Position numbers and translations under genes: made by a program. Below, in pieces: positions 1 through 25,069 of a DNA stretch of 64,000 nucleotides. Position 1 is the stretch's first letter; each line of letters opens with the position of its first letter. The stretch is from Shinella fusca (GTDB lineage Bacteria > Pseudomonadota > Alphaproteobacteria > Rhizobiales > Rhizobiaceae). The notes under the pieces were generated by a model that saw nothing but the letters and a program-made list of their open reading frames with translations, was not told the DNA's origin and made no database searches. The stretch spans positions 1 to 64,000 of the forward strand of contig NZ_JACHIK010000009.1 in assembly GCF_014203155.1 (NCBI RefSeq). Direction: 5' to 3'.

Positions 1-128
1 TATCAGCGCCTGCGCGGCAGGGGAAAACCATTCAAGCTCGCAATGGTCGCAACCATTCGAAAACTCATGACAATCCTCAATGCAATCGCCCGATCACAGG
101 CAGCCCTCTCTCAATGACTCCACGGTTG
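1..128 (+). mobile_element. IS110-family transposase, C-terminal end, plus right boundary of the element
   Basis: The window opens inside a reading frame that stays open from base 1 to a TGA at 115-117. It encodes 38 residues beginning YQRLRGRGKP and continuing with a stretch containing RKLMTILNAIAR. This matches the end of the Transposase_20 domain of IS110-family recombinases, which typically reads Y..L...GKP.K.A..A..RKLLTILNAM. The rest of the gene lies off the left edge, so its integrity is unknown. Only about 11 bases separate the stop codon from a palindromic repeat whose left arm is missing (see 129-188). The element therefore probably ends near base 128, with the short right end seen in the IS110 subgroup. 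IS110 recombinases are DEDD enzymes guided by a bridge RNA encoded in the non-coding end of the element. Here that end would be on the unseen left side. Confidence 0.75.
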
Positions 129-188
129 CTTGACCCGAGGATCCACCGCCTCACCCGCGGCATGGATGGTCGGGTCAAGCCCGACCAT
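129..188. repeat. Paired palindromic intergenic repeat (REP/BIME-like), left palindrome split
   Basis: The second palindrome is intact: arm atggtcggg (166-174), loop tcaag, arm cccgaccat (180-188). The first has only its loop cttga (129-133) and right arm cccgaggat (134-142); the matching left arm is absent and replaced by the end of the IS110 element. The two palindromes are in opposite orientation and are separated by 23 bases starting cca and ending tgg. The same architecture occurs intact at 24923-24990, and a single palindrome at 20282-20304. This is a dispersed non-coding repeat of the kind common between rhizobial genes. Confidence 0.75.
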
Positions 189-246
189 GACGAAAGAGAG
201 GCATGAGGCAGGGCGCGCCTGTCGAGCCCAACCCCAAAAAACACAG

Positions 247-622: not shown

Positions 623-2140
623 TCAGTCCTCGTTCGCCGCAAGCTGCGAAAGGACTTCGCCCTTGCCGCGCGCCCGAAGGATCAGCGGCACGATGATCGC
701 AAGCAGGGCAAGGACGAACAGCAGGGCCGCGATGGGCGACATGACGAGCGCCGTCACGTCGCCCTGGCTGATCGCCAGCGCGCGGCGCAATTGCTGCTCG
801 GCCATCGGCCCGAGGATGAGGCCGACGACCACCGGCGCGATCGGATAGCCGAAGATGCGCATGGCAAAGCCGAGGAGGCCGAAGGCGAGCAGCATGCCGA
901 GCTCGAAGACCGACGGATTGGCGCCGATGGTGCCGAGCGTCGCGAAGACGAGGATGCCGGCATAGAGCCACGGCTTGGGGATGCTCAGCAGCCGCACCCA
1001 CAGGCCGATCAGCGGCAGGTTCAGTACCAGCAGCATGAAGTTGGCGATGAGGAGGCTGGCGATGAGGCCCCAGACGAGCTGCGGGTTGGAGGCGAACAGC
1101 AGCGGGCCGGGCTGGAGGCCGTACTGCTGGAAGCCGGCCAGCATGATCGCCGCCGTCGCCGAGGTCGGAAGGCCGAGCGTCAGCAGCGGCACGAGCGTGC
1201 CGGCGGCGGACGCGTTGTTGGCCGCTTCCGGGCCTGCGACCCCCTCGATGGCCCCGTTGCCGAACTCTTCCGGATGCTTCGTCAGGCGCTTTTCCGCGGC
1301 ATAGGAGAGGAAGGTGCCGATCTCCGCCCCGCCGGCCGGCATCGCGCCGATGGGAAAGCCGATGACGGTGCCGCGAAGCCAGGGCTTCCACGAGCGCGCC
1401 CAGTCGGCGGCGTTCATCCAGACGGACCCCTTGACGGCCTCGATCTTGTCCGGCTCGCTATCGCCCTTGGAAGCGATGTAGAGCGACTCGCCGATGGCGA
1501 ACATGGCGACCGCCAGCGTCGTCACTTCCACGCCGTCGAGCAGATCGGGAATGCCGAAGGAAAGGCGCGTCTGGCCGCTCAGCTGGTCGATGCCGATGAT
1601 CGCCAGCGTCAGGCCGACGAAGAGCGAGGTGAGGCCGCGCAGCGTCGAATCGCCGAAGGCCGAGGAGACCGTCACGAAGGCAAGCACCATCAGCGCGAAA
1701 TATTCACGCGGCCCGAAGACGAGCGCGAGCTTGACGATGAAGGGCGCGATGAAGGCCAGCGCGAGCGTGGCGATGAGGCCGGCGACGAACGAGCCGATGG
1801 CCGCCGTCGCAAGCGCCGGCCCGCCGCGCCCGGCCCGCGCCATCTTGTTGCCCTCGAGCGCGGTGACGATCGAGGCGCTCTCGCCGGGCGTGTTGAGCAG
1901 GATGGAGGCGGTGGAACCGCCGTACATGCCGCCGTAGTAGATGCCGGCGAACATGATGAGCGAGCCCGCCGGATCGAGCTTGTAGGTGACCGGCAGCAGG
2001 AGGGCGACCGTCAGGGCCGGGCCGATGCCGGGAAGGACCCCGACCGCCGTGCCGAGCGTCACGCCGATGAGCGCGTAGAGCAGGTTCATCGGCTGGGCCG
2101 CGACGGAAAGGCCCTGCAGGAAGAATTCGAATGTGCTCAT
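623..2140 (-). CDS. tctA: Tripartite tricarboxylate transporter, large membrane subunit TctA
   Basis: This 505-residue protein is the usual length of the large permease of tripartite tricarboxylate transporters (TTT). It is very hydrophobic throughout, with about 12 predicted membrane segments. It carries the family signatures GVLPGIGP (residues about 34-41), [10 protein letters not shown] (about 68-77) and TPGE shortly after. In TTT systems the large subunit moves a carboxylate such as citrate across the inner membrane, driven by an ion gradient and fed by a periplasmic TctC protein. It is the last gene of tctC-tctB-tctA and starts 15 bases after tctB. The substrate cannot be read from sequence. 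Confidence 0.93.
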
Positions 2141-20281: not shown

Positions 20282-20304
20282 ATGGTCGGGCCTGACCCGA
20301 CCAT
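20282..20304. repeat. REP-like palindrome
   Basis: Arm atggtcggg, loop cctga, arm cccgaccat. The same arms occur at 166-188 and the same arm length and loop size at 24923-24990. A single copy here, 49 bases after phaR, where it could also act as its 3' hairpin. Confidence 0.7.
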
Positions 20305-24841: not shown

Positions 24842-24922
24842 GGAAGGGCAGCCTCGGCACGCCCACCGCTTCATCGCCCTCCGCTTCGCTCGATGGCCTG
24901 CCTTCCCCCACCCACCGACGTC

Positions 24923-24990
24923 ATCCTCGGCCTTGAGCCGAGGATCCATATACCGCAACGGTGATGGATGCTCGGGTCAAGCCCGAGCAT
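24923..24990. repeat. Paired palindromic intergenic repeat (REP/BIME-like)
   Basis: First palindrome: atcctcggc, loop cttga, gccgaggat (24923-24945). Second: atgctcggg, loop tcaag, cccgagcat (24968-24990). Arms differ between the two but pair perfectly in both, and the loops are reverse complements. A 22-base spacer starts cca and ends tgg, as in the split copy at 129-188. Bases 24842-25069 hold no gene. Confidence 0.8.
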
Positions 24991-25069
24991 GACGGAGGAG
25001 AGGTTTGCGGAATGCGGGATACAGGATGCGGCCGGAACTGCACTTTCACACGCCGGCAGACTGCCAGCC

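What the first reader, a model, noticed from the sequence alone, without database searches (positions are those of the whole stretch)
100..190. IS110-family element ends exactly at the loop of a REP-like palindrome
The frame open from base 1 is the end of an IS110-type recombinase (RKLMTILNAIAR). Eleven bases after its stop a palindrome begins with its loop cttga (129-133) and right arm, but its left arm is missing. Other copies in this window (24923-24990) have both arms. The break falls at the arm/loop boundary, with CT as the first two bases after it. Known IS110 relatives such as IS621 insert into REP palindromes and use a CT core with bridge-RNA guiding. The sequence therefore suggests a rhizobial IS110 element whose target is a dispersed palindrome.
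Basis: partly seen in the sequence, partly recalled or inferred. Interest (0 to 1): 0.7.

Follow-up and report, generated by a model that had tools for sequence, protein, structure and literature searches.

The report
RNA-guided IS110 element targeting dispersed palindromes
A small jumping gene in a Shinella bacterium sits precisely inside a short palindrome that is repeated all over the genome, apparently steered there by an RNA it encodes itself; the kind of system is known, but here two different such elements aim at two different points of the same palindrome.

Summary
The window begins inside an IS110-family insertion sequence ("A") whose right end stops exactly where a REP-like palindrome is cut at its arm/loop boundary, CT being the first two bases outside. 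Base 1 is a contig end; the missing half is the start of contig C21, which carries the missing arm. In 18 of 19 Shinella relatives the two flanks lie together, and 4 of 19 hold an intact palindrome there. In this genome 7 left and 6 right ends of A fall at the same point of REPs. The non-coding left end encodes a bridge-RNA-like sequence whose two target guides match the two halves of the cut palindrome. Relatives in Martelella, Devosia and Novosphingobium use their hosts' own REPs. One Devosia copy sits in a gene that has the 11-base target but no right arm, so sequence rather than hairpin seems decisive. A second IS110 element (B) enters the same REP 6 bp upstream, with guides for that register. 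This is IS621-like: a new member of a known kind in an instructive natural series. No experiment was done.

The parts
1..117 (+). 3' end of the IS110-type recombinase gene of element A (38 codons and stop; cut by the contig start)
   Evidence: 78% identical over 37 aa to the C-terminus of the complete S. kummerowiae copy P0001, which matches Pfam DEDD_Tnp_IS110 and Transposase_20 and IS621 8wt6 at E 2.1e-19
118..128 (+). Non-coding right end of element A (CTCCACGGTTG); ACGGTTG is matched by the RNA's left donor guide
   Evidence: same in 6 of 6 right ends in this genome; guide read from the left end printed
129..130 (+). CT core dinucleotide, present at both ends of inserted copies
   Evidence: 26 of 26 left and 25 of 25 right junctions when CT is not asked for in the pattern
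131..145 (+). Right half of the interrupted REP palindrome (TGACCCGAGGATCCA); 134-140 is the right arm
   Evidence: left half CGTCATCCTCGGG at the start of contig C21 (L225)
163..192 (-). Second, inverted REP unit of the same pair
24920..24949 (+). Uninterrupted REP unit, both arms
24965..24994 (-). Uninterrupted inverted REP unit with the perfect core CTCGGGCTTGACCCGAG
20285..20301 (+). Possible single REP core, 3 mismatches (GTCGGGCCTGACCCGAC)

Best explanation
Bases 1 to 128 are the right end of a roughly 1.14-kb IS110-group insertion sequence that works like IS621. Its recombinase (RuvC-like DEDD domain plus a Tnp domain with a catalytic serine) binds a bridge RNA encoded in the element's left end. 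[quoted passage not shown] The other loop reads the circular element's own junction (ACGGTTG-CT-TGTG). Recombination at CT puts the element into the palindrome with one CT at each end. Because the 11-mer CGGG-CT-TGACC lies across the arm/loop boundary of a REP that is repeated all over the genome, the element has about 180 exact landing sites. Shown: junctions, the left flank by synteny, intact palindromes at the empty site in relatives, guide sequences and their register. Inferred: that the RNA is made, bound and used, that this genome's recombinase is active, and that the sites are mostly harmless spacers (not checked site by site).
For: Six right ends and seven left ends in the genome, at the same base of the REP. 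Left flank of the window's copy placed by synteny in 18 of 19 relatives; the join CGTCATCCTCGGG-CT-TGACCCGAGGATCCA restores a perfect REP; 4 of 19 relatives have a palindrome of this kind there. Complete 1,139-bp copy in S. kummerowiae with both arms in its flanks. Guides: A-own with its usual target scores 15 of 16, 0 of 1,000 shuffles as good. With guide positions carried over from A-own by a conserved anchor, without use of the other elements' targets, the A register ranks first of 42 for 7 of 7 A elements, and no other window pair of the same spacing in the same left end scores as high on any register (0 of 88 to 0 of 159 each). For 3 of 3 B elements the B register ranks first (there the guides were chosen by their fit). 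Same junctions in Martelella, Devosia and Novosphingobium, whose REPs have other arms. D. limi copy inside a gene: flanks joined over one CT give a 337-aa open frame with one continuous Peripla_BP_4 domain, E 1.3e-61, and the right arm is absent. Recombinase aligns over its length with IS621, DEDD and serine included. Left-end RNA of A folds better than all 200 shuffles, z -3.6.
Against: Guide fit is not uniform: in the free search shuffles did as well in 52 of 1,000 for the Novosphingobium MAG, 9 for N. aerophilum, 1 to 11 for D. riboflavina, and the best pair for Martelella lay in the donor loop, so that row tests the wrong stretch. In one search the left and right halves of several draft-genome targets were paired by me, since contigs do not link them. 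Guide bases 5 to 7 left of the core often mismatch. The five aligned left ends are about 90% identical, so covariation is scant (6 of 57 pairs changed on both sides, one of them inside the guides) and the consensus fold pairs parts of the guides. B's left end folds only slightly better than chance (z -1.64, 11 of 200 shuffles as good). No good circle-junction promoter for A (TTGCTT-17-TTTACT). The 11-mer is hardly enriched in G156 (18 against 16 reversed) and only about twofold in D. limi (60 against 28) and N. aerophilum (57 against 31). About 79 residues in the middle of this genome's A recombinase, serine included, are in no stretch that I read. No expression or activity data.
Confidence: 0.93

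Rival explanations
1. The recombinase recognises the REP hairpin (extruded or single-stranded palindrome) rather than reading its sequence through an RNA.
For: In 23 of 25 right junctions the bases after TGA are the complement of a left arm seen in the same host, that is, nearly all copies are in palindromes.
Against: The D. limi copy in a gene has CTCGGG-CT-TGACC but no complementary right arm. Element B cuts the same palindrome at another register, and its guides fit that register. Arms vary between hosts while the bases at the core stay.
Confidence: 0.04
2. The element did not insert into the REP; REP-like sequence belongs to the element end, or the junction is an assembly artefact at a collapsed repeat.
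For: The six right and seven left ends of A in this genome are at contig ends, where misjoins are common.
Against: Sequence beyond the palindrome differs from copy to copy; unbroken copies exist in S. kummerowiae, Martelella and a Novosphingobium MAG; palindromes without the element stand at the orthologous spacer in 4 of 19 relatives.
Confidence: 0.02
3. A DNA-binding surface of the recombinase, not an RNA, reads the 11-mer; the left-end RNA has another role such as regulation.
For: No RNA data here; the guide match is partial in some elements.
Against: The guides of A and B differ as their registers differ; IS621 and ISEc21 were shown experimentally to be RNA-guided (PMC11208160, PMC11187229, passages).
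Confidence: 0.03

Closest known systems
IS621 (Escherichia coli, IS110 group; PDB 8wt6)
   Same: Recombinase aligns over its length with the DEDD and serine residues; bridge RNA in the left end, CT core and insertion in REP elements as described for IS621 (passages).
   Different: Different REP and target (ATCAGGCCTAC there; CGGG-CT-TGACC here); low sequence similarity; circle promoter of A is weak.
ISRm19 (Sinorhizobium meliloti, IS110), ISPpu9, ISPpu10, ISPa11
   Same: IS110 elements with all copies in REPs (4/4, 7/7, 7/7, 6/6; PMC1525189 passages).
   Different: ISPpu9 and ISPpu10 share one insertion point in their REP; here A and B use two registers of one REP. The sequence of ISRm19 was not compared here.
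ISEc21 and other seekRNA-guided IS110/IS1111 elements
   Same: RNA from the non-coding region matches both target strands; in the IS110 type that region is mainly upstream of the gene (PMC11187229 passages).
   Different: Other targets; [quoted passage not shown]

Membership tests
IS110 family, IS110 group | DEDD_Tnp_IS110 and Transposase_20 domains | tested here: met
   both above cut-off for P0001 (S. kummerowiae copy); the first also in this genome's 196-aa N-terminal part
IS110 family, IS110 group | DEDD residues and catalytic serine | tested here: met
   P0001 D11, E55, D97, D100, S237 align with IS621 (IS621 numbering D11, E60, D102, D105, S241); the serine region of this genome's own copy was not seen
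IS110 family, IS110 group | Long non-coding left end, short right end, no terminal inverted repeats | tested here: met
   186 nt left, 11 nt right of the stop; absence of inverted repeats judged by eye only
IS621-like bridge-RNA systems | Target loop with left and right guides matching both halves of the target around the core | tested here: met
   weak against shuffles for the Novosphingobium MAG
IS621-like bridge-RNA systems | Donor loop matching the element's own ends | tested here: met
   ACGGUUG-CU and CACA-AG against ACGGTTG-CT-TGTG, read; not tested against shuffles
IS621-like bridge-RNA systems | CT core at both ends of the insertion | tested here: met
   26 of 26 left and 25 of 25 right distinct junctions with no CT in the search pattern
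IS621-like bridge-RNA systems | Promoter formed across the circle junction | tested here: inconclusive
   poor for A; TTGACA-17-TATCTG for B of this genome
IS621-like bridge-RNA systems | RNA expressed, bound by the recombinase and needed for recombination | not testable with these tools
   needs experiment
IS1111 group | Non-coding region downstream, sub-terminal inverted repeats | tested here: not met
   non-coding region is upstream and only 11 nt follow the stop
ISfinder-named element | Identity to a catalogued IS | not tested
   ISfinder is not on hand; no match in the plasmid collection at E 1e-50

The most novel reading that the evidence does not exclude
One REP family serves as a shared landing pad that different bridge-RNA lineages divide by register: A enters at the arm/loop boundary, B 6 bp upstream in the arm, each with its own guides. 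The registers are compatible: a B insertion leaves CGGG-CT-TGACC whole on its right, an A insertion leaves GTCATC-CT-CGGGC whole on its left, so neither element blocks the other. The guides of A drift to fit the REP arms of each new host, so that REPs and IS110 guides evolve together and REP sequence decides which of these elements can enter a genome.
Probability: 0.3. Interest if true: 0.6.

Novelty: new member of a known kind. Interest (0 to 1): 0.45.

Why it matters
It gives a natural programming series for bridge RNAs: two recombinase lineages, two guide sets and two registers in one palindrome, with related A guides in four genera whose REPs have different arms. It suggests how an RNA-guided element can move between hosts by reading the part of REPs that hosts share, and it offers A and B as candidate orthogonal systems for testing guide rules. 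The general principle (IS110 in REPs, bridge RNA) was already known.

Tried and rejected
Plasmid collection: no relative at E 1e-50. Rfam: 7 matches up to E 1, none at its gathering score, taken as chance. Family-wide protein searches: A-type matches at E 1e-60 in 3 of 394 genomes, B-type at E 1e-40 in 3 of 394. Tuning of A guides to host REP arms: 126 of 5,040 permutations do as well, suggestive only. The Martelella row picked the donor loop and is not counted; its homologous loop was scored (13.5 of 16, A register first). A first attempt to fix guide positions by an anchor went wrong for three A elements because the anchor also occurs in the 5' hairpin; the mended script is. A pattern hit in G410 (L181) was dropped from the right junctions as another element, and three chance hits (L092, L093, L136) from those of element C. 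Repeated locus ids of one junction were collapsed before counting. An earlier thought that A and B destroy each other's target was wrong: each leaves the other's core target whole. Structure prediction was not used, as IS621 already matched by sequence.

Papers: PMC1525189, PMC11208160, PMC11208158, PMC11187229 by passages found; all others only as search listings. Those searches listed no paper that by title or abstract start describes this element or two IS110 elements in two registers of one REP; the library lacks most subscription journals and all preprints.

Full report
What is there. The window is contig C9:1-64000 of a 39-contig draft genome. Base 1 is a contig end inside an insertion sequence. 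The genome's genus contains Shinella kummerowiae CCBAU 25048 (G004), so the host is taken to be a Shinella.

Copies in the genome. The same right end occurs six times, each time as ...CTCCACGGTTG|CT followed by (T/C)GACCCGAG. At seven other contig ends the left end TGTGTGGATGAG... follows CGTCATCCTCGGG-CT in six cases and CGTCGTGCTCGGG-CT in one. So there are at least seven copies of this element, here called A, at one point of REPs.

The window's own left flank. Right of the insertion lies a tctA gene (623-2140, minus strand; Pfam TctA). That region was found well enough to compare in 19 relatives (the 20th, G002, gave only weak matches). Of the seven left flanks, that of contig C21 lies next to it in 18 of 19. 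Joining C21 and the window over one CT gives CGTCATCCTCGGGCTTGACCCGAGGATCCA, an intact REP followed by its inverted partner. In 4 of 19 relatives a REP-like core with at most one arm mismatch stands there (L213, L215, L216, L218); in 15 none was found by that pattern.

The element. A complete copy in S. kummerowiae is 1,139 bp with a 312-aa recombinase, 61% identical to this genome's N-terminal 196 aa and 78% to its last 37. It matches IS621 (8wt6) at 2.1e-19 and ISCro4 (9t56) at 6e-20. The middle of this genome's gene was not seen, so its integrity is not known.

The RNA. The 186-nt left end can form a 5' hairpin, a stem-closed target loop and a stem-closed donor loop. The target loop holds CCCTCGGG-TT and GCGGTCG-AG, the donor loop ACGGTTG-CT and CACCACA-AG. 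With G:U and G:T pairs counted half, the A-own guides reach 15 of 16 for the usual target (0 of 1,000 shuffles) and 14.5 for a rarer combination of halves (2 of 1,000). Ten elements gave 15 rows; shuffles doing as well ranged from 0 to 52 per 1,000. Because picks guides by fit, a second test carried the guide positions over from A-own by a conserved anchor: the real insertion register came first of 42 in 7 of 7 A elements, Martelella included, with scores 13.5 to 15. For B, guides were found by their fit, and the B register came first in 3 of 3.

Relatives. A-type elements are in Martelella (record titled UNVERIFIED_ORG), Devosia limi, D. riboflavina, Novosphingobium aerophilum and a Novosphingobium MAG. 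Over seven genomes there are 26 distinct left junctions, 25 CGGG-CT and 1 CGGA-CT, and 25 distinct right junctions, 21 TGACC, 2 CGACC, 1 TGATC, 1 TGTCC; the core is CT in every one also when CT is not asked for. Arms differ by host (CCTCGGG, CCACGGG, CCGCGGG, TCCCGGG and others). In 23 of 25 right junctions the seven bases after TGA or its variant are the complement of a left arm seen in the same host. The exceptions are L147, with an imperfect arm, and L132, with none. With left junction L188, L132 gives an open frame of 337 aa with one continuous Peripla_BP_4 domain across the join. The assembly does not show that link directly; the continuous domain is the evidence for it.

Element B. A second IS110 element in this genome enters the same REP at GTCATC-CT-CGGGCTTG; three left and three right ends were seen. 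Relatives in G156 (6 copies) and G396 (3 copies) are complete, and 9 of 9 rejoin to GTCATC-CT-(C/T)GGGCTTGACC. Guides CGTCATC-CC and GTCCG-AG here fit that register, 6 bp from A's. The complete A (S. kummerowiae) and B (G156) recombinases are 38% identical. Each insertion leaves the other element's core target whole on one side, so the registers do not exclude each other; no tandem pair was searched for.

How it works. By analogy with IS621 (PMC11208160, PMC11208158, passages), the excised circle presents ACGGTTG-CT-TGTG as donor; the recombinase with the RNA pairs donor and target, cuts after CT on the top strands and exchanges them. The genomic outcome is shown here; the biochemistry is inferred. 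The 11-mer CGGGCTTGACC occurs 178 times in this genome against 3 of the reversed control. In the other eight genomes searched it occurs 18 to 123 times against 7 to 31: strong in G411 (123 against 7) and G408 (73 against 11), about twofold in G407 and G409, and absent as enrichment in G156 (18 against 16), which carries B. Whether the sites are intergenic was not checked.

Novelty. IS110 elements in REPs have been known since IS621 (2003, cited) and the 2006 survey (PMC1525189). This is a new member. What I did not find in the papers seen is two IS110 lineages using two registers of one REP, or one lineage following REPs with different arms through several genera.

Noticed in passing
G000 contig ends; L034-L048 (G018); A third IS110 element (C) enters another dispersed repeat, CACC-TT-CTCCCCGC (28 of 29 pattern matches in G018; 0 lack the extra base). 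Left junctions read TT in 13 of 17 (one T fewer in 4); right flanks begin with CT in 15 of 15 distinct (no CT asked). Donor and target cores thus seem to differ and the junctions keep the top-strand outcome, which bears on the fate of the bottom strand.
   Followed up: partly
L160/L164 and L163/L165 (element B in G156 and G396): Two pairs of B copies share the same right flank but have different left flanks, as if copies had recombined or flanks were duplicated.
   Followed up: no
G000 contig ends: 31 of 78 contig ends carry end sequences of elements A, B or C and 19 more carry four other recurring sequences; such repeats break this assembly.
   Followed up: partly
L055 and L078 (starts of contigs C5 and C29): The right flank of element C looks the same at both contig starts, as if one flank were duplicated or assembled twice.
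   Followed up: no
G000:C7, C14, C21, C26, C28 ends: A fourth element whose end (AGAGTATCCGTGTTGGTCAAGG) follows CT in varied sequence; its coding end resembles the IS110 C-terminus by eye.
   Followed up: no
L109 (contig C15 end): The left-end hairpin of A is partly duplicated in this copy (GGCCGGGATGCGCATCCCGGCC twice).
   Followed up: no
L123 and L041: The variant left arm TGCTCGGG (contig C29 end) and variant right arm CCCGAGCA (contig C20 end) mirror each other and may flank one and the same copy.
   Followed up: no
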